DNA of 64,000 bases, taken from NCBI RefSeq assembly GCF_009360615.1, contig NZ_SPEY01000018.1, forward strand, positions 62,001 through 126,000. The letters run 5' to 3'. Below, one piece after another: positions 5,037 through 64,000 of the stretch. The notes beneath the pieces are model-generated. The model saw only the letters and a program-made list of their open reading frames with translations, did not search any database and was not told where the DNA came from. Source of the DNA: Comamonas sp. GTDB lineage: Bacteria; Pseudomonadota; Gammaproteobacteria; Burkholderiales; Burkholderiaceae_C. The position numbers were made by a program, and so were the translations under genes. How positions within the stretch are numbered: position 1 is the first letter of the stretch; the number at the start of each line of letters is the position of its first letter.

Positions 5037-5069
5037 GCCTGCGGGCGGGCGGCGTTCGCGCAGCCAGGC

Positions 5070-6230: not shown

Positions 6231-6353
6231 GTAGGGTCTTGCGATCTTAGCGGTAGCGCCCGGCACCTGCCTGATGCGCGCGGTGAACGATCGGCATGCG
6301 GACATGAAAAAGGGCTGCAATGTGCAGCCCCTGGTGTGCATGGAGACGCCGGA

Positions 6354-47810: not shown

Positions 47811-48052
47811 GTAGCGAATAGCCTTCGATCTTTGCCATGAAACCTGCACGAACCTGCGCGCTTGCAACAAGGCAGATCCGGTGCCAGCGGACATGCTCCG
47901 GTTTGGACTGTGATCTCCTAGCGTTCTGCCCGCGCCTGCGTTGGGCAGCACTGCTGCGGAACCGTTTGACGGACCACCGGTGCTTTTGGGGCAACTTCCC
48001 GAGAGAGTCGGATACCTGCTCTGCCTGAGGCCGGCTGCGCGTGTGTGCCGCT

Positions 48053-49312
48053 CTAGAAGACGCGACCCTCTTGCAGATGGGTGCGTGTGCCATTGAGCTC
48101 GTAGTCGCCAACGACCCGTGACTTGTGCAGCAAGGGGTTGTGGCTGAAGATGGTGCGCAGATTGCGCCAGTGCCTGTCCAGATTCAGTTTGCGGGAGGTG
48201 GCCGAGGCTCCTCCAACCTCGAACATCCGCTCGGCGGCGTTGAGAGCCAGGCGGCTGACGACGAGCTGCGTCTTGGCCGTAGCCAGTGCGCCCTGCAGCA
48301 CGATGTTCTCGGTGTCCTCATGCTCCACCAGCAGTGCCTCGGCACCCAGGTCAAGCTGGCGGGCGTTTTCTGCCACCAACTGGTCTATGGCATAGCTGGC
48401 TGCGGCCAGCTCTCCCACCACCGCCTGCACAAAATGATCATCGCACGAACGCTCGGCAGGACTGTGCATGGCCGGGCGCCCGAGGTGCAGTACATAGTGT
48501 CGTGCATCGCTGAAGAGGTTGCGCACTATGCCGGCTGCAGTGGCCACCAGAATCAGCTGTCGTAATGCCGAGGCATGGCGGCCCGGCAATTGCTCGCGGG
48601 AGCTGGGACTGATCTCGTCGTCGTGCACCAGCACATTGTCCAGTTCCACGCTGCCGCTGGCCGTCAGGCGCTGGCCCATGCCGTCCCAGTCGTCGAGCAC
48701 GCGCACGCCTTCGCGTTGAACGGGTATCACAGCCGTGACGCCCTGCTCCTGCGCGTTGACGGCAAAGACATTGAAATAGTCCGCATAGGCGGTTCCGGTG
48801 GCATAGTATTTTTTGCCATTGAGGCGGTGGTGTTCTCCATCGCGCCGCAGTGTCGAGGTGCTGATACCTGCGCGTGCCGTGCCCAGCTCGGTGAATGCAC
48901 CACCGAACAGCTTGCCTTCCAGCACCCAGCCGATCTGGCGCTGTGCCAGCGGCGAAGGGCTTCGGTCCAGACGCAGCAGCTCGGTCGTGTTGAAGTGAGT
49001 GCGCAGTGCATGGGCCACGTTCGAATCGGCTGCTGCGAGCGTGGCGACCACCTCGATGACATCGGCGATGGAGCCGCCGGGGCCGCCTTGCTCGAGACCG
49101 ATGCGCAGAGCCCCTATGCCTGAAGCACGCAGCAGATCAAAAGCCGCAAAAGGGGCTTCGCGCTGCAGCTCGCGCTGCGCCGCGCCGGGAGCAATGGCTG
49201 CGGCGAGCTGCGGCAGACCCGAGAGTATGTCTGTGCGGCCTGGGCGAGCGGATGGCGCTGCAGATTCCTGTGCGGCCGCGGCTTGCCGCAGAGGTGTGAC
49301 GAATGCATTCAT
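48053..49312 (-). CDS. Acyl-CoA-dehydrogenase-fold flavin oxidase/monooxygenase, SfnB/DszC-like
   Basis: The 419-residue product has an ACAD fold with STSTLRRDGEHHRLNGKKYYATGTAYADYFNVFA and RVLDDWDGMGQRLTASGSVELDNV, the stretch typical of SfnB/DszC-type members that use reduced flavin and O2 on sulfur compounds rather than acyl-CoA. THFNTTELLR lies near residue 110, and the C-terminal helical domain ends NPLLHKSRVVGDYELNG. It is the last gene of the leftward arm of the organosulfur locus, after an aldo/keto reductase and an Opp-type importer. Substrate unknown. Confidence 0.86.
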   Translation of the reverse strand: MNAFVTPLRQAAAAQESAAPSARPGRTDILSGLPQLAAAIAPGAAQRELQREAPFAAFDLLRASGIGALRIGLEQGGPGGSIADVIEVVATLAAADSNVAHALRTHFNTTELLRLDRSPSPLAQRQIGWVLEGKLFGGAFTELGTARAGISTSTLRRDGEHHRLNGKKYYATGTAYADYFNVFAVNAQEQGVTAVIPVQREGVRVLDDWDGMGQRLTASGSVELDNVLVHDDEISPSSREQLPGRHASALRQLILVATAAGIVRNLFSDARHYVLHLGRPAMHSPAERSCDDHFVQAVVGELAAASYAIDQLVAENARQLDLGAEALLVEHEDTENIVLQGALATAKTQLVVSRLALNAAERMFEVGGASATSRKLNLDRHWRNLRTIFSHNPLLHKSRVVGDYELNGTRTHLQEGRVF

Positions 49313-49410
49313 CGGTGATGGCCTGTTTCGGACTTTGAGTGGCAGACGCCACCGTGAAAGCCGGGTCGGGCAGAAGTTTCACGATGGCACCTGCAGAGGC
49401 GTCTGCCGGC

Positions 49411-50427
49411 TTATGCGGCGGCAACGTAGGGAATGCGGCCTTCCACAGGGTGACCGGGGTCGGTGAAGCCCAGTGTTGAAGGATGGCCGGCAGCTACCAG
49501 GCGGTTGACCAGGGCTTCGTCCTCGGCAGTGAACTGGTAGTTCAGAGCGCGGATGTAGCCTTCCCACTGCTCGGGAGTGCGGGGGCCGGCAATCGCAGAG
49601 GTGATCAGGCGGTTGTTGAGCACCCAGGCCAGAGCAAAATCGACGGTGCTGATGTCGCGCGCGTCGGTGTGCCGTTTGATTTCGGCAGCGATGTCGATGG
49701 ATTCGGGACGCCACTCGGTCTCCAGCAGGCGCTTGTCCTTGCGTGCGGCGCGTGAGCCAGGATCGGCAGCCTCCAGGCTCGGGTACTTGGCGGTCAGCAC
49801 CCCTCTCGCGAGAGGGCTGTAGGAGACTACGCCCAGTCCATAGGCTGCCGCCGCCGGCAACTGCTCTGCTTCCGCCGTGCGGTTGACGATGTTGTAGAGC
49901 GGCTGGCTGGCGATGGGCCGGTCTATGCCTTCGGCATCGGCCAGGTGCGCCACCTCGGCAATGCGCCAGCCGCGGAAGTTGGACAGGCCGAAGTAGCGCA
50001 GCTTGCCGGCGCGGATCAGATCGCCGATGGCGCGGACTGCTTCGCCTAGCGGGGCATCGAAATCTGCGCGGTGAAAGTACAGCAGGTCAATGTAGTCCGT
50101 GCCAAGGCGGCGCAGGCTGTTTTCCACCGATTCGATGATCCATTTGCGGGAGGTGCCGGCACGATTGGGGCCTTCGCCCAGAGGGTTGCCGAACTTGGTC
50201 GCCAGAACCCAGTCGTTGCGGTCTGCGGCCAGGGCACGGCCCACAACCTGCTCGGTCACGCCCTTTTGATAAACATCAGCGGTATCGATGAAGTTGATGC
50301 CCTGGGATTTGGCCCTGGCGATGATCTCATGCGAGGTTTTTTCATCGGTGGGGCCTCCAAACATCATGGTGCCCAGTGCGAGGCGGGAGACTTTGAGGCC
50401 GCTGCGGCCCAGATAGCGATAGGTCAT
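49411..50427 (-). CDS. Aldo/keto reductase
   Basis: The 338-residue NADPH-dependent oxidoreductase begins MTYRYLGRSGLKVSRLALGT. The catalytic tetrad can be read as Asp and Tyr in INFIDTADVYQKGVTE, Lys in VLATKFGNPLG, and His in YIDLLYFHRAD; SAIAGPRTPEQWE is the cofactor-binding region. It resembles YajO/Tas-type reductases. It lies between the importer genes and the SfnB/DszC-like gene on one strand, so a role in processing the imported compound is likely but unspecified. Confidence 0.91.
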   Translation of the reverse strand: MTYRYLGRSGLKVSRLALGTMMFGGPTDEKTSHEIIARAKSQGINFIDTADVYQKGVTEQVVGRALAADRNDWVLATKFGNPLGEGPNRAGTSRKWIIESVENSLRRLGTDYIDLLYFHRADFDAPLGEAVRAIGDLIRAGKLRYFGLSNFRGWRIAEVAHLADAEGIDRPIASQPLYNIVNRTAEAEQLPAAAAYGLGVVSYSPLARGVLTAKYPSLEAADPGSRAARKDKRLLETEWRPESIDIAAEIKRHTDARDISTVDFALAWVLNNRLITSAIAGPRTPEQWEGYIRALNYQFTAEDEALVNRLVAAGHPSTLGFTDPGHPVEGRIPYVAAA

Positions 50428-50448
50428 GGAGATGGCTTTGATCGGTGG

Positions 50449-51408
50449 TTAGTGGAGAAAGGAAATCACAGAGGTCTGTGGATGGTGGCAAGCGACCTGG
50501 TGGCCGCCTCCCAGATCGGTCAATGCAGGCTCCTGCCTCAGGCACAGTTCGCTGGCCCTGGGGCAGCGAGGATGGAAACGGCAGCCCGACGGCAGGTTCT
50601 GCGGACTTGGGAGATCGCCGCTCAGCGGGGCTGCCTGCCGGTGGCGGGATGGGTCGGGCACGGCATCGATCAAGGCCTGGGTGTAGGGGTGGCGAGGAGT
50701 GCTCCAAAGGCTGCGGCGATCGGCGCTCTCGACGATGCGCCCCAGATACATGACTAGCACGCGGTCGGCAAAATACTGCACCACGGACAGATCGTGCGAG
50801 ATGAACAGGTAGGAGAGACCGAACTCGCGTTTCATCTCGACCAGAAGGTTCAGAATCTGGGCCTGAATCGACAGGTCCAGGGCTGATACCGGCTCGTCGC
50901 AGACCACCAGATCTGGCTGCAGCATCAAAGCCCGTGCAATGCCCAGGCGCTGGCGCTGGCCGCCCGAGAATTCATGCGGGTAACGACTCAAGGCGCTGCG
51001 CGGCAGGCCTACGCGGTCGAGCAACTGCTCCACTTGCCTGCGGCGCTGGGAACGATCACCGAGGCCATGCACCTGCAACGGCGTCTCGAGAATGCTGCCA
51101 ATGCTGTGGCGCGGATTCAGCGAGGCGAACGGGTCCTGGAAGATCATCTGCATGCGCTTGCGCAGGCCGCGCAACTGGGCGCCCTTGAGCGGCAGGATGT
51201 CCTGTCCGTCGAGCGTGATATGCCCTGCAGTCGGTCTTTCGAGCCGCAGCAGGCTGCGACCCAGGGTAGATTTGCCGCAACCCGACTCGCCCACCAGGCC
51301 CACGGTTTCGCCGCGTTCCACGGTGAAGGAAACGCCATCCACGGCGCGCAGCACGCCCTTGGGCAGTTTGAAATGGGTCTGAAGATCGCTGACGTTCAGC
51401 AGGCTCAT
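50449..51408 (-). CDS. Oligopeptide-type ABC transporter ATP-binding protein (OppF/DppF)
   Basis: The product is 319 residues from ATG 51408; the upstream extension is outside the family. Walker A GESGCGKST, Q-loop QDPFASLNPR, signature FSGGQRQR, Walker B LVVCDEPVSALD, switch His in ISHDLSV. The C-terminal oligopeptide/dipeptide domain has SGCRFHPRCPRASELC, with Cys residues typical of OppF. It pairs with the adjacent OppD-type ATPase. Confidence 0.93.
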   Translation of the reverse strand: MSLLNVSDLQTHFKLPKGVLRAVDGVSFTVERGETVGLVGESGCGKSTLGRSLLRLERPTAGHITLDGQDILPLKGAQLRGLRKRMQMIFQDPFASLNPRHSIGSILETPLQVHGLGDRSQRRRQVEQLLDRVGLPRSALSRYPHEFSGGQRQRLGIARALMLQPDLVVCDEPVSALDLSIQAQILNLLVEMKREFGLSYLFISHDLSVVQYFADRVLVMYLGRIVESADRRSLWSTPRHPYTQALIDAVPDPSRHRQAAPLSGDLPSPQNLPSGCRFHPRCPRASELCLRQEPALTDLGGGHQVACHHPQTSVISFLH

Positions 51409-51415
51409 GGCAATC

Positions 51416-52414
<999 letters not shown>

Positions 52415-53431
52415 TCAGCGCTCCTGCGAAAAACGTGGGTTCAGCGCGTCGTTGAGGCCGTCGCCGATGAGGTTGAAGGCCAGCACGGCAAACACTATGG
52501 CCAGGCCCGGCGCGGCGGTCAGATACCAGGCGGTACGCAGCAGCTCGCGCCCCGCGCCGATCATGCTGCCCCAACTGACGACATTGGGGTCGCCCATGCC
52601 CATGAAGGACAGCGCGGATTCCAGCAGAATGGCCGAGGCCACCATGACCGAGGAGGTGACGATGATCGGGGGCAGGGCATTGGGAAGGATTTCGCGCAGG
52701 ATGATGCGGGCATGCGAGTAGCCCAGGGCACGCGCGGCCAGCACAAAGTCCTTTTCGCGCAGCGAACGGAACTCGGCGCGCACCAGGCGAGCCACGGTCG
52801 GCCAGGTCACCAGACCTATGGCCATGACGATCGTGCCTATCGCCGGTTGTGCAATGGCGACCAGAACGACCAGCAGGATGAAGCCGGGAATGGTCTGGAA
52901 CAGCACCACCACGCGCTGCAGCACGTCATCGACCCAGCCTCCGAAATAGCCGCTGATCGAGCCGATACCGATGCCCAGGCTCAGACCGATCAGGGTTGCC
53001 GAGATGCCTACCAGCAGCGAAATCCGGGCGCCGTGGGCAATGCCGGCCGCTACATCACGCCCCATGGAATCGGTGCCGAGCAGAAACTGCGAGTCCTGGC
53101 CTGGCCAGAGAAAGGGCTGGGCCACCATGTCCAGCGGATCGCCGGGATAAAGCCAGGGGGCAGCCAGGGCCAGCGCCAGAACCGCCAGCAAAAAGGCGCA
53201 GCCCAGCATGGCCGTTGGGTTGTGCAGAAAAATGCGCAGTGCTCGATGGCCCTGGCTTGTGCTGCCTGCACTGGCCTCGCTGGTGGTGGTACGCACTGCA
53301 TCGGGTGCGTGCACATTGGGCCAGGGGGGCGCCGGCTCGGGCGCTGCGGCCTCGTTGCGCGCGGCAGTCGCAGCCGATGTAGCCGCGTTCGGTGCGGTCT
53401 GCAGCAGATCAGGTGTGGATGACAGGGACAT
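52415..53431 (-). CDS. Oligopeptide-type ABC transporter permease (OppC/DppC)
   Basis: The product is 338 residues from ATG 53431 (MSLSSTPDLLQ). An unusually long Ala/Pro-rich N-terminal tail of about 70 residues precedes the first membrane segment (NPTAMLGCAFLLAVLALALA); the periplasmic motif HLLGTDSMGRDV of the family appears as QFLLGTDSMGRDV; the EAA loop is at RALGYSHARIILREILPNALPP. Start and the preceding stop overlap by one base. Confidence 0.93.
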   Translation of the reverse strand: MSLSSTPDLLQTAPNAATSAATAARNEAAAPEPAPPWPNVHAPDAVRTTTSEASAGSTSQGHRALRIFLHNPTAMLGCAFLLAVLALALAAPWLYPGDPLDMVAQPFLWPGQDSQFLLGTDSMGRDVAAGIAHGARISLLVGISATLIGLSLGIGIGSISGYFGGWVDDVLQRVVVLFQTIPGFILLVVLVAIAQPAIGTIVMAIGLVTWPTVARLVRAEFRSLREKDFVLAARALGYSHARIILREILPNALPPIIVTSSVMVASAILLESALSFMGMGDPNVVSWGSMIGAGRELLRTAWYLTAAPGLAIVFAVLAFNLIGDGLNDALNPRFSQER

Positions 53432-54417
53432 CAGCGAACCTCGATGCGCGGGTCCAGCCACGCGTGCAGCAGATCGACCAGCACATTGGCGGCGATCACC
53501 AGCAGGGAAGAAAGAAACAGCACGCCCATCAGCACATTGAAGTCACGGCTGAGCACGGCTTCGAACGCGAGCCGACCCAGGCCAGGCCAGCTGTAGACGG
53601 TTTCGACGACCACGGCGCCGCCAAGCATGCCGCCCAGGTGCATGCCCGCCATGGTCGTGACGGGTAGCAGGGCGTTGCGCAATACATGGCGCAGCGTGAT
53701 GCGCCAGGGAGAAAGGCCCTTGGCTGCTGCGGTGCGCACAAAGTCCTGGGACTGCACCTCCAGCATGGCCGCACGTGTCAGCCGCGCATAGATGGCGACA
53801 AAGAACAAGGCCAGCGAGGTGGCAGGCAGGACCATGTAGCGCAACTGGTCCAGCACGGCGGCCAGACCGCTGAGCTGCGAGCCAATGCTGGCCGATCCGC
53901 CGCTGGGCAACCAGCCCAGCTGCACCGAGAACAGCACGATCAGCATCAGCCCGATCCAGAAGCCCGGCACCGAATAGAACAGCAGGGACAGCACCGAGAG
54001 CAGGCGGTCGGGCAGGCGACCTGCGAAGTACGCCATGGTTGCACCCAGCGCGATGCCCAGCGTCAGCGCGATGGACAGGGCCAGTCCCATCAGCAGCAGC
54101 GTGCTTGGCAGGCGCTGAGCTATCAGAGCCATCACCGGCATGTTGTAGCGCGGCGAGAAGCCCAGGCTGAGGTGGGCGAGGTTGCCCAGATAGGCCTGCA
54201 ACTGCTGGAGCACCGTCAGATCGAGCCCGAAGCGCGAGCGCAGTGCCGCCAGGGTCTCGGCCGTGGCCGCGCCGGCTTCACCGGCCATGACATCGGCGGC
54301 ATCGCCCGGCGTCAGCTGCAGCAGCAGAAAGTTCAATACGGCGACGCCCAGCACGGTGGGGACCGCATATTTCGCATTGAACCAAAGCGAGCGTAATAAA
54401 CGTGGAGTGGCACTCAT
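53431..54417 (-). CDS. Oligopeptide-type ABC transporter permease (OppB/DppB)
   Basis: The 328-residue product begins MSATPRLLRSLWFNAKYAVP and has six membrane segments, LTPGDAADVM early, and the EAA loop around RTAAAKGLSPWRITLRHVLRNALLPV, plus VETVYSWPGLGRLAFEAVLSRD, all OppB features. ATG 54417 has no strong ribosome site, but upstream codons are worse. It is the first gene of the leftward arm; the AT-rich 358-base region before it separates it from the divergent monooxygenase gene. Confidence 0.93.
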   Translation of the reverse strand: MSATPRLLRSLWFNAKYAVPTVLGVAVLNFLLLQLTPGDAADVMAGEAGAATAETLAALRSRFGLDLTVLQQLQAYLGNLAHLSLGFSPRYNMPVMALIAQRLPSTLLLMGLALSIALTLGIALGATMAYFAGRLPDRLLSVLSLLFYSVPGFWIGLMLIVLFSVQLGWLPSGGSASIGSQLSGLAAVLDQLRYMVLPATSLALFFVAIYARLTRAAMLEVQSQDFVRTAAAKGLSPWRITLRHVLRNALLPVTTMAGMHLGGMLGGAVVVETVYSWPGLGRLAFEAVLSRDFNVLMGVLFLSSLLVIAANVLVDLLHAWLDPRIEVR

Positions 54418-54775
54418 GGGCAATCGTGTGTTAATCCATGAATGATAGAGGCGTAAATATTCAGTGAAATCTGTTTATTGAGCCTGATTTCTTATATCGA
54501 TCATTGAAAAATAAATAAGAAAGATTTCATGAGTGAATTATTGGAGAAGTACAGATTATATTTTTGAGATTCTTGTTTATGTTTGAAAAATCTATAGGCG
54601 TGAGTATTCGGATTTGCTTGAGGGGCAAGGGCTTGGCATATTTCTGAATATGCAAATGCGAAATTATTGCTAGGGATATCAGAGTCGTCATGTGATTATT
54701 GGAAGGCGCTGTGATTCGGTATTTTCATTTCTATAGAAATATCTGCGTCACATATCAAGACCCCATGGCTGATCT
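54418..54775. other. AT-rich divergent control region of the organosulfur locus
   Basis: No gene. Markedly more AT-rich than its flanks. It holds two perfect inverted repeats: TTTCTTAT/ATAAGAAA (54488-54495 and 54515-54522) and GCATATT-TCTG-AATATGC (54636-54653). Promoters for both arms must lie here. Confidence 0.6.
54636..54653. promoter_or_regulatory. Perfect 18-base inverted repeat, candidate operator
   Basis: GCATATT-TCTG-AATATGC lies between the divergent oppB-like and monooxygenase genes. Symmetry and position suggest a regulator-binding site; the regulator is not in the window. Confidence 0.5.
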
Positions 54776-55960: not shown

Positions 55961-56007
55961 GCGCCGCCGTTCTGCATCGTCCTTTCTCTTTCTTGCGGAT
56001 CTCTCCC

Positions 56008-57594
56008 ATGCATACCATTTACAAGCCCATGTTCTGGGCTCTGCTGTCCGTGATGACTGCGGGCGCTCATGGCCAGACGCAGGCCACCCCCGTCAAAGGG
56101 GGCACGGTGACAGCGGTGGTCGCCCAGGAACCCACCTCGCTGGTATCGTTTCTGGACACCAAGACCGACAACCGCGATCTCAGTGCCAAGATCACCGAAG
56201 GCCTTTTGCGCTATGACGCTCAGTTCAAACCCCAGCCGTTGCTGGCCACATCCTGGAGCATCAGCCCTGACGGCCTCAGATACACGTTCAAGCTGCGCCA
56301 GGGGGTGAAGTTCCATGACGGCCAGGATTTCAGCTCGGCCGATGTACGCTATTCGCTGCTGACCCAGAAAAAGCTGGGGCCGCGCGGCCGCATCACGCTG
56401 CAGAGCCTGGAGCGTGTGGATACGCCCGATCCCCACACGGCCGTGCTGGTGCTCTCCAAACCGGCGCCTTTTCTGCTGAAGTCGCTGTCGTCGGCAGAGC
56501 TGCCCATCGTTCCGGCCCGGCGTTACGGCGATGCCGATCCGCTGGCCAGTCCCAACATCACGGCCCCCGTGGGCACCGGTCCCTTTGTGTTCGATCAATG
56601 GGTGCGCGGCAGCCATGTGATCCTCAAGCGCAATCCGAACTACTGGCGCCAGGGCGTGCCCCATGTGGATCGCGTGGTCTTCCGTTTTGTCCGCGATCCC
56701 TCGGCGATCTCTGCGGCCGTGGAAACGGGCGAGGCCGATATCGCCCAGAACCTGAGTCTGGCCGATCTCGGACGCCTGCTGCAAAAGCCCGCGCTCAAGC
56801 TGGACGCGAGCTATGACGCCTTTCTCAACAATGCGTCCTTTCTTGAATTCAATGTAGAGAATCCGGTACTGGCCAAAGCCGAGGTGCGTCATGCGATCGC
56901 CCATGCCGTGGACCGCCAGTTCATCGTCAACAACGTCTACTACAAGCAGGCGGAGCTGGTGAACTCGCCGATTCCCAGGGTGCTCGCCGGCTATTACGAC
57001 GACAGCAGCTTCAGGTACGGCTTCGATGTGAACCGCGCCAACCAGTTGCTCGATGCTGCGGGCTATCCGCGCCAGGCCAACGGCCAGCGCTTCAGCGTCC
57101 GGCTCAGCTATATCCCCGGTGCCCAGTTCAAGCAGACGGCAGAGTACCTGCGCTCCGCACTCAACCGCGTGGGTATCAAGGTGGATATCCTCGATGGCGA
57201 CCTGCCGACTTTTCTCAAACGCGTCTACAGCTCGCGCGAGTTCGATCTGAACATCAACGGCCTGGGTCGATTGTTCGATCCCTCGGTGGGGGTGCAGCGT
57301 ATCTACTGGTCCGACGGTATCAAGAACCCGTTGATCTGGATCAATGCCTCGCATTACAACAATCCCCAGGTCGACGAGCTGTTCCGCCAGGCGGCCGTCG
57401 AGTTGGACGACAGCCGGCGTGCCGCACAGTTCCGCCAGATCCAGCAGATCGTGGGACGGGATCTGCCCGTCTATCCGCTGGCCACCGTGCCATCGGCGCT
57501 GCGCGTGCACAGCACCCGCGTCCACGGGCTCAACAACAGCATCGACCTGACGGCAGGCGACTTCTCCGATCTCTGGCTGGAGCCCCGCAAATGA
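56008..57594 (+). CDS. Peptide/opine-type ABC substrate-binding protein (SBP family 5), first copy
   Basis: The product is 528 residues from ATG 56008, with a Sec signal peptide HTIYKPMFWALLSVMTAGAH. SBP_bac_5 features: ITEGLLRYDAQFKPQPLLATSWSISPDG, FKLRQGVKFHDGQDFSSADV, VGTGPFVFDQWVRGSHVILKRNPNYW. It should deliver ligand to the divergent OppBCDF-type importer, which has no binding protein of its own on that strand. It overlaps the amidase gene by four bases. Confidence 0.92.
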   Translation: MHTIYKPMFWALLSVMTAGAHGQTQATPVKGGTVTAVVAQEPTSLVSFLDTKTDNRDLSAKITEGLLRYDAQFKPQPLLATSWSISPDGLRYTFKLRQGVKFHDGQDFSSADVRYSLLTQKKLGPRGRITLQSLERVDTPDPHTAVLVLSKPAPFLLKSLSSAELPIVPARRYGDADPLASPNITAPVGTGPFVFDQWVRGSHVILKRNPNYWRQGVPHVDRVVFRFVRDPSAISAAVETGEADIAQNLSLADLGRLLQKPALKLDASYDAFLNNASFLEFNVENPVLAKAEVRHAIAHAVDRQFIVNNVYYKQAELVNSPIPRVLAGYYDDSSFRYGFDVNRANQLLDAAGYPRQANGQRFSVRLSYIPGAQFKQTAEYLRSALNRVGIKVDILDGDLPTFLKRVYSSREFDLNINGLGRLFDPSVGVQRIYWSDGIKNPLIWINASHYNNPQVDELFRQAAVELDDSRRAAQFRQIQQIVGRDLPVYPLATVPSALRVHSTRVHGLNNSIDLTAGDFSDLWLEPRK

Positions 57595-59123
57595 CAGCCG
57601 TGAATCCGTCCCTTCCCACGCCGGCCGATGACGGGCTTGAATCCCTGGTCTTTGCCAGTGCACGCGAGCAGGCCCAGGCCCTGGCCGACGGCCGGGTCAC
57701 GGCCGTGGCGCTGCTGGAGCAGGCGCTGGCGCGCATGGAGCGTCATGAGGCACAACTCAATGCAGTGCCCGTGCGCGCCGTGGCCCAGGCTCGCAGCGAT
57801 GCGCTGCAGGCCGATGCCGCCTTGCAGCGCGGCGAGCGCAGACCGTTGCTGGGCGTGCCCATCACGGTCAAGGAGAACTTCGACGTGGCCGGCCTAGCCA
57901 CCACCGTGGGCAACCCCGACTTCCAGGACAATATCGCGCGCCAGGATGCTTTGGCCGTGGCTGCGCTGCGCGCGGCGGGAGCCGTGCTCATCGGCAAGAG
58001 CAATGTGCCGCATTCCCTGGCTGATCTGCAAAGCTACAACACCATCTACGGCACCAGCCGCAATCCCTGGGATCTGCAGCGTACGCCGGGCGGATCTTCG
58101 GGTGGCGGCGCGGCTGCCGTGGCTGCAGGCTATGTGGCTCTCGAGCTGGGCACCGACATAGGTGGCTCGGTACGCATACCCGCGCATTTCAACGGCATCT
58201 TCGGGCACAAGACCAGCTATGGGCTGATCTCCATGCGCGGAGCCGGAGCGCCCCAGGGGCGCTTCAGTGCACGTGATCTGTCGGTGGCCGGGCCGCTGGC
58301 GCGCACCGCACAGGATCTGGAACTGGCACTGGACCTGTTGCTGAACCTTGACCCGCTGGAGGCCAAGGGCTGGAAATTCACACTGCCACCGGCGCGCCAC
58401 CGGCAGCTCAGGGATTTCCGCGTACTGGTGATCGATGCCTGGCCCGGGACCAAGCCCAGCCTTTCCGAGCAGCTCGTCATAGACCGCGTACTCAAAGGAC
58501 TGAAATCTGAGGGTGTGACGCCGGTGCTGTGGCGCGATCTTCCGGCGGCACTGCGCCCCGACCTCGGGGAGCAGCACCGCACCTATCGCAGCCTGCTGGG
58601 CGCGTCGGTGGCGAATCCGCCGCCGCTGTCGCCGGCCCAGCGCAAGCGCCTGGCCGAGTTGGCGGCGGATGATCGCAGCGCCGAGGCGGCCTTGCTGCGA
58701 GCGCCCAGCCTGCCGCATGCGACTTGGCTGCAGGACAACGAGCACCGCCATGCCCTGCGCCATCAGTGGGAGCAGCTGTTCACCCACTTCGATGTGCTGC
58801 TCAGCCCCGTCGCCCCCACGCCAGCCTTTGCGCACCAGCACCAGGAGCCCAAGGAGGAGCGCCGCTTTCCGGTGGCGTATGCCGACGGCATGCGCCAGCT
58901 GGGGTTTCGCGAGCTCTTCAACTGGGCGGGCCTGCCCGTACTGCCCGGCTTGCCGGCGACCAGTTTTCCGCTGGGCCTGGACGACGACGGGCTGCCCGTC
59001 AGCGCCCAGGCCGTGGGTCCGTATCTCGAGGACCGCACCACGATCGCCTTTGCCCATGCGTTCGAGCTCGCGCATGGCGGCTTTGTGGCACCGCCGCTTC
59101 ACAGCCTGGAGGTCGTGGCATGA
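57591..59123 (+). CDS. Amidase (amidase-signature family)
   Basis: The 510-residue Ser-cisSer-Lys hydrolase has Lys94 in ITVKENFDVAG, cis-Ser169 in RTPGGSSGGGAAA and the nucleophile Ser193 in GTDIGGSVRIP. Length is normal. No signal peptide, so it is cytoplasmic. Coupled to the binding protein before it and to the ACAD-fold gene after it (ATGA overlaps on both sides). An amide or sulfonamide-like group on the imported compound could be its target, but this is inference from context. Confidence 0.92.
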   Translation: MTAVNPSLPTPADDGLESLVFASAREQAQALADGRVTAVALLEQALARMERHEAQLNAVPVRAVAQARSDALQADAALQRGERRPLLGVPITVKENFDVAGLATTVGNPDFQDNIARQDALAVAALRAAGAVLIGKSNVPHSLADLQSYNTIYGTSRNPWDLQRTPGGSSGGGAAAVAAGYVALELGTDIGGSVRIPAHFNGIFGHKTSYGLISMRGAGAPQGRFSARDLSVAGPLARTAQDLELALDLLLNLDPLEAKGWKFTLPPARHRQLRDFRVLVIDAWPGTKPSLSEQLVIDRVLKGLKSEGVTPVLWRDLPAALRPDLGEQHRTYRSLLGASVANPPPLSPAQRKRLAELAADDRSAEAALLRAPSLPHATWLQDNEHRHALRHQWEQLFTHFDVLLSPVAPTPAFAHQHQEPKEERRFPVAYADGMRQLGFRELFNWAGLPVLPGLPATSFPLGLDDDGLPVSAQAVGPYLEDRTTIAFAHAFELAHGGFVAPPLHSLEVVA

Positions 59124-60358
59124 GCGAAATTGTGCAAATGGAGCGCGGGCATCTCTCGCCTGCCAAGGCCAGGGACCCCGCACCGCTTGGCGTGACCGCG
59201 CAGCAGGCACCGGAGCTGGTGGCCAGGGCCGCAGCGCTGGCCGTGCAGCTGGCGGTGCTGGCCGCTGCTCACGATAGCAGCGGCGCACCGCCCGCACCGC
59301 AATTTGCGTTGCTGCACGATGCCGACCTGCTGCGCCTGACGATTGCGAAAGAGGCTGGCGGCCATGGTGCGGGCCTGGCGACGGCACGCGCCGTGGTTGG
59401 CGCCGTGGCCCAGGGCGATCCCGCGGTGGCGCTGATTCTGTCCATGCACTACAGCATGCATGCGGCGATAGCGCGCTCCCAGCAGGCGGGTTCGGGGGAA
59501 TGGTCTGCGGCACTGGCGACCGAGCTGATTGCTGCCAGTCTGCAAGGGCCTGCGCTGCTCAATGCAGCCCAGGTGGAACCTGAGCTGGGCTCGCCCTCCC
59601 ATGGCGGTTTGCCTGCGGCAAGGGCCCGGCGTGTGCAAGGGGGCTGGCAGCTCAGCGGGCACAAGATCTATGTCACGGGCGGGCCGTTGCTGGCATGGAT
59701 CAGCGTGCTGGCGGTGACCGACGAGGACAAGCCGCGCCTGGGCAGCTTTGTGCTGCCGCGCGGCACGCCGGGCTCGCGTCTGGTCGAGACCTGGGACCCC
59801 ATGGGCATGCGTGCCACGGTCAGCCAGGATTTGCTGCTGGAAGAGGCCTGGGTGCCCGACCACCATGCGGTGGGCCTGCGCCCGGCCGCTCAGGGCCTGC
59901 AGCGCGAGGCGCATGGTATTGCCTGGTATTTCAGTCTGGTGGCCAGTGTCTACGATGGCGCGGCGCGCGCTGCACGCGACTGGCTGGCCGACTTTCTCAA
60001 TCACCGGCGCCCCAGTGCACTGGGCGGTGCGTCCCTGGCTTCGCTGCCCACGGTGCAGGAGAAGTTTGGCGAGATCGAAGTGCTGCTGCAGGCCAGTGAC
60101 TGCCTGCTGGACAGCCACGCACGCGCCTATGACGCGGGCTCTGCTCCCGACGGGCTGGCGGCAGTGGCCAAGCATGTCGCCGTGGAAAACGCCGTGCGTG
60201 CCGCCACGCTGGCTCTGGAGTTGGCCGGCAACCACGGTCTGGCGCGTCGCAATCCGCTGGAGCGCCATCTGCGCAATGTGCTTTGCAGCCAGATCCATTC
60301 ACCGCCCAACAACCTGATTCGCAGCAATGCCGGCCGCGCAGGCCTGCAGCGCCGCTAG
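59120..60358 (+). CDS. Acyl-CoA-dehydrogenase-fold flavoprotein, DszC-like, second copy
   Basis: The product is 412 residues from ATG 59120. ACAD-fold landmarks: LLRLTIAKEAGGHGAGLATAR, AVALILSMHYSMHAAIARS, GWQLSGHKIYVTGGPLLAWISVLAV, SRLVETWDPMGMRATVSQDLLLE, and HGLARRNPLERHLRNVLCSQIHSPPNN. Its placement among monooxygenase, binding-protein and desulfinase-like genes favours a flavin-dependent oxygenase over a true dehydrogenase. It differs clearly from the copy at 48053-49312, so the two probably act on different intermediates. Confidence 0.85.
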   Translation: MSEIVQMERGHLSPAKARDPAPLGVTAQQAPELVARAAALAVQLAVLAAAHDSSGAPPAPQFALLHDADLLRLTIAKEAGGHGAGLATARAVVGAVAQGDPAVALILSMHYSMHAAIARSQQAGSGEWSAALATELIAASLQGPALLNAAQVEPELGSPSHGGLPAARARRVQGGWQLSGHKIYVTGGPLLAWISVLAVTDEDKPRLGSFVLPRGTPGSRLVETWDPMGMRATVSQDLLLEEAWVPDHHAVGLRPAAQGLQREAHGIAWYFSLVASVYDGAARAARDWLADFLNHRRPSALGGASLASLPTVQEKFGEIEVLLQASDCLLDSHARAYDAGSAPDGLAAVAKHVAVENAVRAATLALELAGNHGLARRNPLERHLRNVLCSQIHSPPNNLIRSNAGRAGLQRR

Positions 60359-60399
60359 AGCGCGCTCTCCGTCTGTTTTCCACTCCGACTGCCTTCACC

Positions 60400-62025
60400 A
60401 TGTCCGCTGATATCGACTCTTCTCCGGCCTCGCGCCGCAGCTTTGTGCTGGCCGCCGCAGCCTCCGGCCTGTCCTCCATCGTTCCCTCGGTCGGCTGGGC
60501 CCAGCAGGAAAAGCCGCAAAAAGGCGGCACGCTGACGCTGCTGCTGTTTCCCGAGCCGCCGACATTGACCACGATTGCACATACGGCGGGTTCGTCAGTG
60601 ACGATCTCGGGCAAGGTCACCGAGGGCTTGCTGACCTATGACTTCAACCTCAACCCCCAGCCCCAGTTGGCGGTGTCGTGGACCATCAGTCCCGATGGCC
60701 TGCTCTACAGCTTCAAGCTGCGCCAGGGTGTGAAATGGCATGACGGCAAGCCGTTCACGTCGGCCGACGTGGCGCATTCCATCGCCTTGCTCAAGGAGTT
60801 CCATCCGCGTGGTCGCGCCACTTTTGCCAGCGTCTCAGAGGTCCAGACACCCGATGCGCACACCGTGGTGCTCAAGCTAAGCAAGCCGATTCCCTATCTG
60901 ATCACGGCGCTGGCGGCCTCGGAATCGCCCATGGTGCCCAAGCATCTGTATTCCACGGGGCGTGCCGATGCCAATCCGGCCAACAATGCACCGGTGGGGA
61001 CCGGGCCTTTCGTGTTCAAGGAATGGGTGCGCGGCAGCCATGTGATTTACGAGCGCAACCCCCATTACTGGGATGGTGACAAACCGTATATCGACCGGCT
61101 GATCGTGCGCTTCATTCCCGATGCAGCGGCACGCACGGCAGCGATTGAAAGCGGGCAGGTGCAAATTGCTCCGAGTTCGCCGGTGCCCTTCTCCGAAGTC
61201 GATCGCCTGCGCACCAAGCCCGGCCTGAGCTTCGAGACCCGGGGTTATGAGTACATCAACACCGTTTATCGTCTGGAATTCAACCTGGAGCACGAGGCCT
61301 TGAAGGATCTACGGGTGCGCCAGGCCATTGCCCACGCGATCCAGCGCGAAAACCTGCTCAAGGTCGCCTGGTACGGTCAGGGGCGGCTGACCTCGGGGCC
61401 GGTCCATCCCGCCCTCAAGAAATTCTATGTGCCTGACCTTCCCCTACTGCCCCATGACCTCAAGGCTGCCGAGAAGCTGCTGGACGATGCCGGGCTGCGG
61501 CGCGGCAAGGCTGGTGGCAATTGGCGCATCCGGCTGCATCTGACGCCGATTCCCAACGAGGGCGGCCAGCGTACGGCAGATTTTCTCAAGCAGGCCCTGG
61601 GGCGCATAGGCATTGACGTGCAGATCAACGGCCAGGACTTCGCCACTTACATCAAGCGCGTCTACACCGATCGTGCTTTCGATCTGCATGTCAGCGCCAT
61701 GAGCAACACCTTCGACCCTACCGTGGGCATACAGCGGCTGTACTGGTCAAAGAACTTCAAGCGCGGCCTTCCTTTCTCCAATGGAGCCCACTATGTCAGC
61801 CCCGAGGTGGACCGCTTGCTGGAGTCCGCAGCCGTCGAGGTCAACGAGCCGCAGCGCATCCGCGATATCGCCGAGTTCCAGAAGCGCATCGCCCTCGATC
61901 TGCCGGACATCACTCTGGTCGCGCCGCATATCTACACCATCGTCGACAAGCGTGTGCGTAACCACACGGTGGGCGCCGACGGCGTGGCCGGAAATCTGGC
62001 AAGCGTGTGGCTGGCGGCATCCTGA
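60400..62025 (+). CDS. Peptide/opine-type ABC substrate-binding protein (SBP family 5), second copy, Tat-like signal
   Basis: The product is 541 residues from ATG 60400. The N terminus has SRRSFVLAAAASGLS, a twin-arginine-type signal, unlike the first copy. SBP_bac_5 stretches match the first copy closely in VGTGPFVF, EWVRGSHVIYERNPHYW and DPTVGIQRLYWS. Two binding proteins for one importer suggest two related ligands. A 31-base gap separates it from the desulfinase-like gene. Confidence 0.92.
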   Translation: MSADIDSSPASRRSFVLAAAASGLSSIVPSVGWAQQEKPQKGGTLTLLLFPEPPTLTTIAHTAGSSVTISGKVTEGLLTYDFNLNPQPQLAVSWTISPDGLLYSFKLRQGVKWHDGKPFTSADVAHSIALLKEFHPRGRATFASVSEVQTPDAHTVVLKLSKPIPYLITALAASESPMVPKHLYSTGRADANPANNAPVGTGPFVFKEWVRGSHVIYERNPHYWDGDKPYIDRLIVRFIPDAAARTAAIESGQVQIAPSSPVPFSEVDRLRTKPGLSFETRGYEYINTVYRLEFNLEHEALKDLRVRQAIAHAIQRENLLKVAWYGQGRLTSGPVHPALKKFYVPDLPLLPHDLKAAEKLLDDAGLRRGKAGGNWRIRLHLTPIPNEGGQRTADFLKQALGRIGIDVQINGQDFATYIKRVYTDRAFDLHVSAMSNTFDPTVGIQRLYWSKNFKRGLPFSNGAHYVSPEVDRLLESAAVEVNEPQRIRDIAEFQKRIALDLPDITLVAPHIYTIVDKRVRNHTVGADGVAGNLASVWLAAS

Positions 62026-62056
62026 TTCTTTCACCGTCTCAATCAAGGAGAAACGC

Positions 62057-63142
62057 ATGAGTTCCACCCACAGCACGGCGGCTCAGCCGCAATCCCTCTG
62101 GTATACCCGCTGCCCCGTGCCGTCCCCGCTGGGGATTGCCGCGCAGCAAGGCTGGCTGCAGTCGGCCTTTGCTGAGCTGGGCATTGGTGTGGAGTCGATT
62201 TTCGACTCCAAGGACCGCAGCGTGCGAGAAAGCCATTTCGACCATCATCTGTCATGGTCCTTCCGGCAGGGCGGCAATATTCCCCCGATCTGGGCGCGCG
62301 CCAAAGGGCGCGATACCCGGCTCGTCGCCATCACCTGGACCGACGAATTCCAGGCACTGATCACGTTGCCTGGTCGCGGCATTCATGCGCCCGAGCAACT
62401 GGCCGGCAGGCGCTTTGGCGTACCAGCCCGCGTCAATGACCTGATCGACTTCCACCGCGCGACGGCACTCAAGGGGCTGGTCTCCGGCCTGTCGCTGGCT
62501 GGCCTCAGCCATCGCGATGTGGAGCTGGTCGACCTGGTGATCGAGGAGTCCATCATCCAGGAGCAGGGCACGCCCAGCCTGTTCGGCCTGCGCCGCCGCC
62601 ACCCTTATTTCCGCGAAGTCGAGGCCCTGGTGCGCGGCGAAGTGGATGCGATATTCGTCAAAGGTGCCGAAGGGGTGTTGGTGGCCAATCTGATGGGCGC
62701 CCAGATTGTCAGCGAGTTCGGCTCTCACCCCGACCCGCGTGTGCGCATCAACAATGGCACGCCACGTACGCTGACCGTGGATGCGGCCCTGGCCGGGCAA
62801 CGCCCGGACCTGGTGGTGGAACTGCTGCGCGTGGTGCAGCGCGCAGGCCGCTGGGCCGAAGCCCATCCCGACGAGACGCTGCGGTTTGTCGCGAGGGAAA
62901 TCGCCACCAGCGAGGAGGCGATCCTGGCTTCGAATGGGCCCGATGTGCACCGCCATCTGGACATCAGCCTGAAGCCGGAGCTGATTGATGCCATCGGCTA
63001 TTTCAAGGACTTTCTGCTCGAATGGGGATTCCTTGCCGCTGACTTTTCCCTCGCGGACTGGGTGGACCAGAGGCCGTTGGCCGCCTTGCTTGCCCAGCAG
63101 TCCGCTGCTGCCGAGCGGCCCGAGGCGGCAGTCAGCGCATGA
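62057..63142 (+). CDS. DszB-like sulfinate desulfinase (periplasmic-binding fold, cytoplasmic)
   Basis: The product is 361 residues; AAGGAG precedes ATG 62057. The N terminus has no signal peptide, arguing against a transport binding protein although the fold is the same. Compared from memory with Rhodococcus DszB (365 residues): YTRCPVPSPL puts Cys19 at the DszB nucleophile Cys27, and HF-N8-R-x-GG-x-IPP places His60 and Arg70 exactly as in DszB. LAGRRFGVPA and a C-terminal helical tail also align. DszB hydrolyses an aryl sulfinate to sulfite. A scavenged binding protein is the alternative. Confidence 0.8.
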   Translation: MSSTHSTAAQPQSLWYTRCPVPSPLGIAAQQGWLQSAFAELGIGVESIFDSKDRSVRESHFDHHLSWSFRQGGNIPPIWARAKGRDTRLVAITWTDEFQALITLPGRGIHAPEQLAGRRFGVPARVNDLIDFHRATALKGLVSGLSLAGLSHRDVELVDLVIEESIIQEQGTPSLFGLRRRHPYFREVEALVRGEVDAIFVKGAEGVLVANLMGAQIVSEFGSHPDPRVRINNGTPRTLTVDAALAGQRPDLVVELLRVVQRAGRWAEAHPDETLRFVAREIATSEEAILASNGPDVHRHLDISLKPELIDAIGYFKDFLLEWGFLAADFSLADWVDQRPLAALLAQQSAAAERPEAAVSA

Positions 63143-64000
63143 GCAAGAGAGCAGAACCCAGAGTTCTGGTCAGTGGTGCCAGTGGGCGGCTGGGGCAGTT
63201 GCTGGTGCCGCGTTTGCTGGCACGCCATGCGCGTGTGCGCGTGCTGGTGCGCTGCGCCGCCACGGCACGCTCGCTATGGGGTGATGCGGTGGAGATTGCA
63301 GAAGCCAGCTTCAATGAACAGGCCTCCTTGTGCGAGGCCATGCCCGGGGCGGACAGCCTGTTCCTGCTTTCGCCCATAGGCCCCGCGCTGGCCGCGCAGC
63401 AGTCGCGCGTGATCGAGGCCGCGCAGGCCGCCGGTCTGTCTCATATCGTCAAGCTTTCGGGCTCGGACTGGACGATAAATCCTTCTGGTCTCTCGCTGTC
63501 GGGCGATGCCCATGGCCATGTTGAGCAGCTTTTGCAGGACAGCGGCATCTCGCATGTGGTGCTGCGCCCCAATGCCTGGATGCAGGTGGGCTTGAGCCGG
63601 GTGGCCGGCGATCTGCGCGAGGGCGATGCGATCCGTTGCAACCACATCGGCGCCGCTGTGTCCTACATCGATGCCAGGGACATTGCCGATGTGGCCGTGC
63701 AGGCGCTGCTCAATCAGAGGCTGGTGCGCCAAATGCGCGAGCGCGCGCCCGGACCGTGGGTGCTGACTGGTGGGCAGGCGGTGGGCGCGCAGCAACTGGC
63801 GCAGATCGCCTCGCACCACCTGTCCCGGCCGATTCGGGTGGAGGCGCCATTGCCTGCGCTTGCGCAGGACCCGTTCATTGCTCGGGTGCATGGGCAGTTC
63901 TTTGCTCTGATGAGCGAGGGACATGCGGCCGCGGTGACCGATACCGTCAGACTGGTGCTGGGGCGCGAGCCACGCAACGTGGCGGATTTTCTGGCCGAAC
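63139..64000 (+). CDS. NmrA-like NAD(P)-binding protein, 3' end cut by window
   Basis: ATG 63139 overlaps the stop of the desulfinase-like gene; the frame is open to the window edge (287 residues visible). The dinucleotide motif reads VLVSGASGRLGQLLVPRLL (residues 9-27), followed by RVRVLVRC, GADSLFLLSPIGP and YIDARDIADVAVQALL, as in NmrA/atypical short-chain dehydrogenases. It belongs to the rightward arm. A role as a reductase or redox sensor is possible but not shown. Confidence 0.85.
   Translation, partial: MSKRAEPRVLVSGASGRLGQLLVPRLLARHARVRVLVRCAATARSLWGDAVEIAEASFNEQASLCEAMPGADSLFLLSPIGPALAAQQSRVIEAAQAAGLSHIVKLSGSDWTINPSGLSLSGDAHGHVEQLLQDSGISHVVLRPNAWMQVGLSRVAGDLREGDAIRCNHIGAAVSYIDARDIADVAVQALLNQRLVRQMRERAPGPWVLTGGQAVGAQQLAQIASHHLSRPIRVEAPLPALAQDPFIARVHGQFFALMSEGHAAAVTDTVRLVLGREPRNVADFLAE

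What the first reader, a model, noticed from the sequence alone, without database searches (positions are those of the whole stretch)
48053..64000. Two-armed organosulfur locus with a full 4S-like enzyme set and its own Opp-type importer
The sequence shows divergent operons with an OppBCDF-type importer, two SBP family 5 proteins, two ACAD-fold (SfnB/DszC-like) oxidases, an SfnG/SsuD-like FMN monooxygenase, an amidase, an aldo/keto reductase and a DszB-like protein. In Rhodococcus, DszC, DszA and DszB oxidise dibenzothiophene to a sulfone, then a sulfinate, then release sulfite. The same three roles are represented here, with transport and an amide hydrolase. I infer a route for an imported, probably amide-containing organosulfur compound. 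I know of no described pathway with this gene set.
Basis: partly seen in the sequence, partly recalled or inferred. Interest (0 to 1): 0.9.

Follow-up and report, generated by a model that had tools for sequence, protein, structure and literature searches.

The report
Conserved sulfur-scavenging cluster with DszB-like desulfinase
A soil bacterium carries a compact, swappable set of 13 genes that looks built to import an organic sulfur compound, oxidise it and cut the sulfur off with a relative of the oil-desulfurising enzyme DszB; similar layouts recur in root-nodule and other soil bacteria, but the compound is not known.

Summary
At 48053-64035 two divergent arms hold an SfnB/DszC-like oxygenase, aldo/keto reductase and OppFDCB; and an SfnG-like monooxygenase, two binding proteins, amidase, a second ACAD-fold oxygenase, a DszB-like protein and an NmrA-type reductase. 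It is one unit: in 5 of 5 cluster-less relatives examined about 16.3 kb is missing, and 8 of 8 other carriers of the genus keep the order. The divergent AKR-Opp arm lies beside the DszB-like gene in 60 of 79 loci of a genome scan, those 60 alphaproteobacterial by title. DszB is the protein's only PDB sequence match and top fold match; its Cys27, His60 and Arg70 are invariant in 39 of 39 aligned sequences. Likely role: sulfur scavenging by a 4S-like route (import, S-oxidation, C-S cleavage to sulfinate, desulfination to sulfite). Corrections: the DszA role is filled by an SfnG-like enzyme; DszB's Tyr63 and Gln65 are replaced, so the substrate is probably not dibenzothiophene-derived; the amidase is a betaproteobacterial accessory. 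Substrate, activity and sulfur regulation are unproven.

The parts
48053..49312 (-). ACAD1: flavin-dependent S-oxygenase candidate of the SfnB/DszC/MsuC type
   Evidence: NCBIfam SfnB 283 bits (cut-off 430.9), DszC model 137 (cut-off 850); PDB best TdsC 153 bits, then 8cda 150, 6u76 methanesulfinate monooxygenase 137, DszC 113
49411..50427 (-). AKR: aldo/keto reductase; the motifs usual for the Asp-Tyr-Lys-His tetrad are present
   Evidence: Pfam PF00248 216 bits; motif positions (tetrad recalled)
50449..51492 (-). OppF-type ATPase
   Evidence: Pfam ABC_tran + oligo_HPY
51416..52414 (-). OppD-type ATPase
   Evidence: Pfam ABC_tran + oligo_HPY
52415..53461 (-). OppC-type permease
   Evidence: Pfam BPD_transp_1 + OppC_N
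53431..54423 (-). OppB-type permease
   Evidence: Pfam BPD_transp_1 + BPD_transp_1_N
54424..54775 (.). shared divergent intergenic region (352 bp), with blocks conserved among 9 Comamonas sequences
54776..55960 (+). LLM: FMNH2-dependent monooxygenase, SfnG/RutA-like (sulfone-cleaving candidate)
   Evidence: Pfam Bac_luciferase 180 bits; SfnG model 202 (cut-off 382.95), RutA 154 (cut-off 498.3); PDB SfnG 159, RutA 131, DszA 84
55957..57594 (+). SBPa: family 5 solute-binding protein with N-terminal hydrophobic stretch (start 55957 GTG or 56008 ATG)
   Evidence: PF00496 293 bits
57591..59123 (+). amidase; the motifs usual for the Ser-Ser-Lys triad are present (betaproteobacterial accessory)
   Evidence: PF01425 294 bits; PRK06170 model 534 bits, over its cut-off 503; motifs (triad recalled)
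59120..60358 (+). ACAD2: second ACAD-fold protein, monooxygenase type
   Evidence: PDB 5gj7/5z8t 166 bits, DszC 40; fold search best 5z8t 'Flavin-containing monooxygenase'; C-terminal IHSPP, His393 invariant in the 25 rows of A4
60400..62025 (+). SBPb: family 5 solute-binding protein with a Tat-like signal (RRSF, by eye)
   Evidence: PF00496 297 bits; start chosen at MSADID
62057..63142 (+). DszB-like sulfinate desulfinase candidate; Cys19, His60, Arg70, Gly73
63139..64000 (+). NmrA-like NAD(P)-binding reductase; continues past the window end to 64035 on the window scale
47912..64000 (.). block that is absent from relatives (about 47912 to 64180 on the window scale)
   Evidence: empty sites L112-L116, 5 of 5 examined

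Best explanation
The block is one accessory sulfur-acquisition module. Two family-5 binding proteins and OppBCDF import a soluble organosulfur compound (inferred). In Comamonas and related betaproteobacteria an amidase trims an amide from it (inferred). The SfnB/DszC-like enzyme, perhaps helped by the second ACAD-fold monooxygenase, oxidises the sulfur to the sulfone with FMNH2 (inferred from family). The SfnG-like enzyme cleaves one C-S bond to give a sulfinate and an aldehyde, which the aldo/keto reductase would reduce (inferred by analogy to SfnG; the aldehyde product is recalled). The DszB-like enzyme, probably cytoplasmic, releases sulfite from the sulfinate by Cys-proton substitution (inferred from conserved catalytic residues), and sulfite enters cysteine synthesis. 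Reduced FMN comes from elsewhere: an SsuE-type reductase is encoded on another contig. Shown here: gene set, boundaries, presence or absence as a block, conservation, catalytic residues and predicted fold. Not shown: substrate, activity and regulation.
For: Unit: empty site in 5 of 5 relatives examined; Hsp70-pair gap 17.6-34.8 kb in 8 carriers against at most 5.1 kb in 33 of 34 non-carriers; ACAD2 orthologues (83% or more) in exactly the 9 of 53 genus genomes that hold the DszB-like gene. Conservation. Desulfinase: DszB is the only PDB sequence match and leads the fold search at 1e-20 against 9e-15 for SsuA; C19, H60, R70, G73 invariant in 39 of 39; a C--H(x9)R-x-G-G pattern, written after seeing that alignment, in 106 of 107 DszB-like frames and in no other of 8,298 frames, at least five genomes being counted twice; Cys27 essential and RXGG conserved in DszB (PMC6100217 sections 4 and 8). 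S-oxygenase. LLM. Where the SfnG-like LLM is missing (28 of 79), a DmoA- or SsuD-type LLM lies within the stretch in 25. FMN reductase: SsuE over its cut-off in the own genome, MsuE beside the cluster in Mesorhizobium. [quoted passage not shown] Further sulfur-type genes by family resemblance in 65 of 79 stretches, but in only 17 of 79 if LLMs are left out; no chance control.
Against: No sulfur-limitation or phenotype data for this locus were found. Matches to SfnB, SfnG and DszC models are below their equivalog cut-offs. The NMT1/SsuA fold is shared with binding proteins and with Thi5. ACAD1 (390 bits or more) is present in 50 and the SfnG-like LLM in 51 of 79 stretches, and 4 of 79 have no ACAD hit of 100 bits; flanks and contig ends limit these counts. 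In 14 of 79 the Opp arm is not in the divergent place, in Variovorax rearranged or not in reach. Of the sulfur genes seen in annotated plasmids, sulfite oxidase recurs in 0 and TauA in 1 of 79 stretches. His60 of DszB is not essential: its Gln mutant lost about 17-fold. One divergent paralogue (L066) lacks the cysteine. The hydropathy test did not separate the DszB-like protein from exported proteins. The expression data met for a probable S. meliloti counterpart do not mention sulfur.
Confidence: 0.65

Rival explanations
1. The 62057 protein is an SsuA/THI5-like binding protein (as public annotation calls its relatives), and the locus is an importer with flavin enzymes for some sulfonate or vitamin-like compound, with no desulfinase step.
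For: Pfam gives only NMT1 (30.5 bits) and NCBIfam only SsuA_fam at 65 bits, below the cut-off of 163.5; SsuA is the next fold match; relatives with an annotated gene are named ABC transporter substrate-binding protein.
Against: No export signal evident by eye (the hydropathy measure is weak); DszB outranks SsuA by five orders or more in the fold search and is the only PDB sequence match; the active-site Cys, His and Arg are invariant; the locus already has two family-5 binding proteins.
Confidence: 0.2
2. The locus degrades an N-heterocycle or amide for nitrogen or carbon: RutA-like LLM opens an amide, the amidase finishes, the NMT1-like protein binds a pyrimidine.
For: RutA is the second-best model and PDB match of the LLM; amidase over its cut-off; nitrate assimilation-type genes lie downstream.
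Against: SfnG outranks RutA; ACAD1 matches sulfur oxygenases; DszB-like active site; the amidase is found in 11 of 79 stretches only; the nitrate-type genes lie beyond the downstream Hsp70 gene, outside the inserted block; sulfur-linked neighbours in five annotated plasmid stretches.
Confidence: 0.1
3. A true 4S or benzothiophene (bds-type) pathway for thiophenic hydrocarbons (a special case of the best explanation, so the odds overlap).
For: Same three enzyme roles; Sinorhizobium sp. KT55 desulfurises benzothiophene and is reported to use dimethyl sulfone as sulfur source (passages of PMC3868597 and PMC6630823), and sinorhizobia carry this locus.
Against: DszB Tyr63 and Gln65 replaced by invariant His and Leu; an Opp importer, amidase and reductases suggest a polar, water-soluble substrate (inference); KT55's genome was not looked for here, so its genes are unknown to me.
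Confidence: 0.1

Closest known systems
dsz operon (4S pathway) of Rhodococcus
   Same: Roles of S-oxygenase (DszC-like), sulfone-cleaving LLM and DszB-like desulfinase with the same catalytic Cys, His and Arg
   Different: LLM nearer SfnG than DszA; order and strands differ (dsz order recalled); Opp importer, AKR, amidase, second ACAD and NmrA added; DszB residues Tyr63/Gln65 not kept
bdsABC and neighbouring transporter genes of Gordonia terrae C-6 (benzothiophene)
   Same: Desulfinase, FMNH2-dependent monooxygenase and alkanesulfonate-type LLM in one operon; ABC transporter genes with adjacent numbers are also up on benzothiophene (PMC3868597 passages)
   Different: The adjacent importer is annotated as sulfonate/nitrate/taurine type, not Opp; actinobacterial; no AKR or amidase mentioned in the passages read
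sfn genes for dimethyl sulfone use in Pseudomonas (SfnB, SfnG)
   Same: SfnB-like ACAD and SfnG-like LLM
   Different: Both below the equivalog cut-offs; a DszB-like enzyme and Opp importer are added (sfn gene content recalled)
Divergent operons sma2085-sma2077 and sma2087-sma2101 on S. meliloti pSymA
   Same: Five-gene and eight-gene divergent operons (PMC5940162 section 16) fit the layout found at pSymA 1168362-1189399 and in strain M162
   Different: The record held carries no gene names there, so identity of the tags with this locus is my inference; no amidase of this family found; second DszB-like copy; DmoA-type LLM

Membership tests
DszB / HBPS desulfinase family | Sequence and fold similarity to DszB over SsuA-type binding proteins | tested here: met
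DszB / HBPS desulfinase family | Catalytic Cys27, His60, Arg70 and RXGG motif | tested here: met
   39 of 39 sequences, the window's own included; alignment to DszB; roles from PMC6100217
DszB / HBPS desulfinase family | Tyr63 and Gln65, whose mutation affects DszB activity | tested here: not met
   invariant His63 and Leu65 instead; a sign of another substrate, not of another fold
DszB / HBPS desulfinase family | Cytoplasmic, no export signal | tested here: inconclusive
   no signal evident by eye, but the hydropathy measure does not discriminate
DszB / HBPS desulfinase family | Releases sulfite from a sulfinate | not testable with these tools
   needs an enzyme assay
4S pathway (dszABC) | DszC-type S-oxygenase | tested here: inconclusive
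   a relative: TdsC is the best PDB match; but the DszC equivalog cut-off is not reached, 137 against 850 bits
4S pathway (dszABC) | DszA-type sulfone monooxygenase | tested here: not met
   SfnG 159 and RutA 131 outrank DszA 84 bits
4S pathway (dszABC) | Conversion of dibenzothiophene to 2-hydroxybiphenyl | not tested
   no experiment
SfnB and SfnG equivalogs (dimethyl sulfone use) | Score over the curated NCBIfam cut-offs | tested here: not met
   SfnB 283 of 430.9, SfnG 202 of 382.95
Opp/Dpp-type ABC importer | Two BPD permeases, two ATPases with oligo_HPY domain, family-5 binding protein | tested here: met
Amidase signature family | Family profile and Lys, cis-Ser and Ser motifs | tested here: met
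   PF01425 and PRK06170 over the cut-off; motifs (triad recalled)
Sulfur-starvation regulon | Induction when sulfate is limiting | not tested
   no expression data on sulfur for this locus were found in the ten paper searches

The most novel reading that the evidence does not exclude
This is a further type of complete natural desulfurisation pathway ending in a DszB-type desulfinase, beside dsz/tds and bds: a mobile module of plant- and soil-associated alpha- and betaproteobacteria that imports a polar aryl or alkenyl organosulfur compound through an Opp transporter. If so, DszB-type enzymes are general soil sulfur-scavenging desulfinases and the fuel-desulfurising 4S enzymes are one specialised branch; the benzothiophene desulfurisation by Sinorhizobium sp. 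KT55 could come from it.
Probability: 0.4. Interest if true: 0.75.

Novelty: new variant of a known kind. Interest (0 to 1): 0.6.

Why it matters
DszB-type desulfinases are known to me from a few fuel-desulfurising bacteria, where this step is the slowest (PMC6100217, section 4). A family with the same catalytic residues, conserved with its own importer across nodule, root and soil bacteria, would give a natural role to this chemistry, a pool of new desulfinases, and a defined locus for testing how such bacteria obtain sulfur from organic matter. The public annotation seen names these proteins as transporter binding proteins, so a likely enzyme is hidden in plain sight.

Tried and rejected
Considered: (1) binding protein, not enzyme, for 62057: kept as a rival at 0.2. 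(2) Nitrogen/pyrimidine locus: kept at 0.1. (3) Chance neighbourhood: rejected by the empty site and by conservation. (4) ACAD2 as a true acyl-CoA dehydrogenase: disfavoured, because 5z8t/5gj7 are the nearest structures and its C-terminal stretch reads IHSPP where, as I recall, such dehydrogenases carry a catalytic glutamate; I made no alignment with one. (5) ACAD2 as a 3-sulfinopropanoyl-CoA desulfinase: the model scores 91 bits against a cut-off of 600. (6) Regulation: no regulator in the block; the shared intergenic region has conserved blocks but I did not identify a site. (7) Substrate: not determined.

Literature searches (10 of 10 used), in openly licensed PMC papers only, listed no paper that I recognised as describing this gene set; listings and abstract beginnings were seen, most papers were not opened. 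One search was too broad to be informative. One search did not identify a paper for 5gj7/5z8t. Searches used S. meliloti locus tags that I recalled; they led to PMC5940162. Seen of papers: PMC5940162 passages and section 16; PMC6100217 outline, sections 4 and 8; passages only of PMC3868597, PMC11852219, PMC6395730, PMC3511301, PMC6630823, PMC4327732. PMC6395730 reports a sulfolane-degrading Rhodoferax without dszB.

Counts: neighbourhood counts use score thresholds set by me, on stretches of at most 10 kb each side, some cut by contig ends. The 79 loci are those kept by the tool (129 relatives; best 80 kept, 79 distinct); five are Comamonas and at least two contigs or strains give two loci each. 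A1 holds 38 of the 79 plus the window's protein. Five of 94 plasmid records were read with annotation, a sixth came without annotation. Hsp70-gap counts use 42 of 53 genomes; 11 were left out (5 without any match; 6 with partners split, missing or fragmented, among them the carrier G007). The five empty-site genomes are 5 of 44 genus genomes without the DszB-like gene. L038 was dropped from A1.
Full report
What is there. Frames and family scans confirm a two-armed locus. The minus arm reads OppB, OppC, OppD, OppF, aldo/keto reductase and an ACAD-fold protein nearest the SfnB/DszC group. The plus arm reads an SfnG-like LLM, a family-5 binding protein, an amidase, a second ACAD-fold protein, another family-5 binding protein, a DszB-like protein and an NmrA-like reductase. 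The last gene runs off the window; the contig continues and it ends at 64035 on the window scale. Past it come an Hsp70-type gene with a DUF3731 domain, a TctC-type receptor, a nitrate-sensing regulator and nitrate-type transport and reductase genes, which are not part of the locus.

Where it comes from. The window lies at contig C33 62001-126000 of its assembly. The gene is patchy: 9 of 53 genomes of the genus at E 1e-20 or better and 10 of 200 drawn from the family at 1e-60 or better, the own genome included in both.

It is one unit. The cluster sits between two Hsp70-type genes. In 8 carriers the gap between them is 17.6 to 34.8 kb, and in 33 of 34 non-carriers it is 5.1 kb or less, with one of 11.0 kb (coordinates, typed into; 42 of 53 genomes usable). 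DNA alignment of five non-carriers runs up to window position 47906-47911 and resumes at 64178-64186, with about 115-127 bases of their own between. So a block of about 16.3 kb with exactly these 13 genes is present or absent. All 8 other carrier stretches taken from the genus show the same 13 genes in the same order (in one, G014, the ACAD2 frame is split by a stop). Orthologues of ACAD2 (83% or more) occur in exactly the nine genomes with the DszB-like gene; nine further genomes hold only 43-46% relatives, and one carrier (G017) has such a relative as well.

It is conserved far away. A scan of species genomes gave 79 loci for the DszB-like protein. OppB and OppC lie upstream on the opposite strand in 65 of 79, and AKR with Opp genes in that layout in 60 of 79; the other five are the Comamonas loci, whose stretches end before the AKR. 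By record title the 60 are Alphaproteobacteria of Rhizobium, Agrobacterium, Mesorhizobium, Phyllobacterium, Devosia, Neorhizobium, Sinorhizobium, Ensifer and some smaller genera. With Comamonas the layout spans two classes. ACAD2 is found in 64, the SfnG-like LLM in 51, ACAD1 in 50, the amidase in 11 of 79. The 28 stretches without the SfnG-like LLM mostly hold another LLM (DmoA-type in 20, SsuD-type in 16, neither in 3). In Variovorax, Curvibacter and some others the Opp arm is rearranged or not in reach (14 loci listed). No formal chance model was run; the same divergent order in different genera and classes is the argument.

The desulfinase. The 62057 protein has two PDB sequence matches, both DszB; a profile of 39 sequences gives DszB at 8.7e-23 over most of the length and nothing else at 0.001. 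Its predicted structure (mean pLDDT 87) matches DszB at 1e-20; the next protein, SsuA, is at 9e-15. Cys27, His60, Arg70 and Gly73 of DszB align with Cys19, His60, Arg70 and Gly73, invariant in 39 of 39. A pattern of these residues, written after seeing that alignment, occurs in 106 of 107 DszB-like frames and in none of the other frames among 8,298; at least five Comamonas genomes are in that set twice, and the exception is a divergent, partly seen copy in a Devosia locus. In DszB Cys27 is essential, His60 and Arg70 appear to hydrogen-bond the substrate, and RXGG is conserved in homologues; the His60Gln mutant keeps some activity (PMC6100217, sections 4 and 8 read). Tyr63 and Gln65 of DszB, reported there to affect activity, are replaced by invariant His and Leu; Ser25 is Thr in the window's protein. 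So it very probably is a DszB-type enzyme for a different substrate.

The oxygenases. ACAD1 matches TdsC (153 bits), a 'probable monooxygenase' (8cda, 150), a methanesulfinate monooxygenase (137) and DszC (113) in the PDB. The LLM matches SfnG (159), RutA (131) and DszA (84). ACAD2 matches 5gj7/5z8t (166 bits), and its model (mean pLDDT 82) matches 5z8t, titled 'Flavin-containing monooxygenase', best. No flavin reductase lies in the block; an SsuE over its cut-off is on contig C116, and an MsuE over its cut-off lies beside the Mesorhizobium cluster.

Setting in other bacteria. The five annotated plasmid stretches hold further sulfur-linked genes: sulfonate binding protein, sulfurtransferase, cysteine dioxygenase and cystathionine beta-lyase in Variovorax, TauA in Allorhizobium, a rhodanese-like protein in R. 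acidisoli, sulfite oxidase in S. meliloti, MsuE and a rhodanese-like protein in Mesorhizobium. Searching the 79 stretches with such proteins gave at least one in 65, mostly LLMs; leaving the two LLM queries out it is 17 of 79, with rhodanese in 10, MsuE in 7, sulfurtransferase in 2, TauA in 1 and sulfite oxidase in 0 (no chance control). In S. meliloti, divergent operons sma2085-sma2077 and sma2087-sma2101 rise when pSymB 635,940-869,642 is deleted (PMC5940162, section 16 read); the words sulfur, sulfate and sulfonate do not occur in that paper's main text. The layout fits pSymA near 1178362, but the record held has no tags there, so the identification is mine. That paper shows two active divergent promoters, not a sulfur function. 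Another paper states, as data not shown, that SMa2103, a sulfite-oxidising enzyme gene, is up in the presence of taurine (PMC3511301 passage); whether it is the sulfite oxidase gene beside this locus I did not verify.

Mechanism proposed. Import by the Opp system; S-oxidation by ACAD1, possibly ACAD2; oxidative C-S cleavage by the LLM to sulfinate plus aldehyde; aldehyde reduction by the AKR; desulfination to sulfite by the DszB-like enzyme. The amidase would act on an amide in the betaproteobacterial version only. All steps are inferred from families and conserved residues; none is shown by experiment. [quoted passage not shown]

Known or new. The nearest described case met is bdsABC of Gordonia terrae C-6: desulfinase, DszC-like and LLM genes in one operon, with up-regulated transporter genes of neighbouring numbers; peptide-type ABC genes elsewhere in that genome are up as well, one set numbered next to a monooxygenase gene (PMC3868597 passages). 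The present set differs in its Opp importer, divergent layout, AKR, second ACAD, NmrA and amidase. Hence a new variant of a known kind.

Noticed in passing
window 44597-46561 and 64178 onward (L003 about 4178-7031): The cluster is inserted between two Hsp70-type genes, the first preceded by DUF2760 and the second carrying DUF3731, which are near neighbours in 33 of 34 usable non-carriers; in the G018 group the gap is larger (24.6-34.8 kb).
   Followed up: yes
window 54424-54775: Divergent intergenic region with conserved blocks in Comamonas and, in the window, a perfect inverted repeat GCATAT-N6-ATATGC just before a conserved AAATGC; the repeat is not kept in the more distant carriers; possible regulator site, unidentified.
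   Followed up: partly
L018 15974-19304 and L066: Sinorhizobium, Neorhizobium, Devosia and some other loci carry a second DszB-like copy on the plus arm; a further copy in L066 (minus strand, 3-656) lacks the catalytic cysteine.
   Followed up: partly
L015 9648-10058: In Variovorax paradoxus VAI-C a gene annotated as NAD(+)--rifampin ADP-ribosyltransferase (arr) lies inside the cluster.
   Followed up: no
G014:C1:1455015-1456190 and L103 10770-11186 region: The ACAD2 gene is interrupted by a stop codon in one Comamonas genome and falls into two frames in S. meliloti 1021, while the rest of the cluster keeps its order.
   Followed up: no
L016 18903-28551: Next to the Allorhizobium cluster lies a second importer with TIGR04028-type binding protein, LLM, alkylhydroperoxidase-domain proteins and a 2-oxoglutarate oxygenase, another set whose role is not clear to me.
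   Followed up: no
L002 (own genome, contig C58 1683-2066): A distant relative (29% over part) of the DszB-like protein exists in the same genome; not examined.
   Followed up: no
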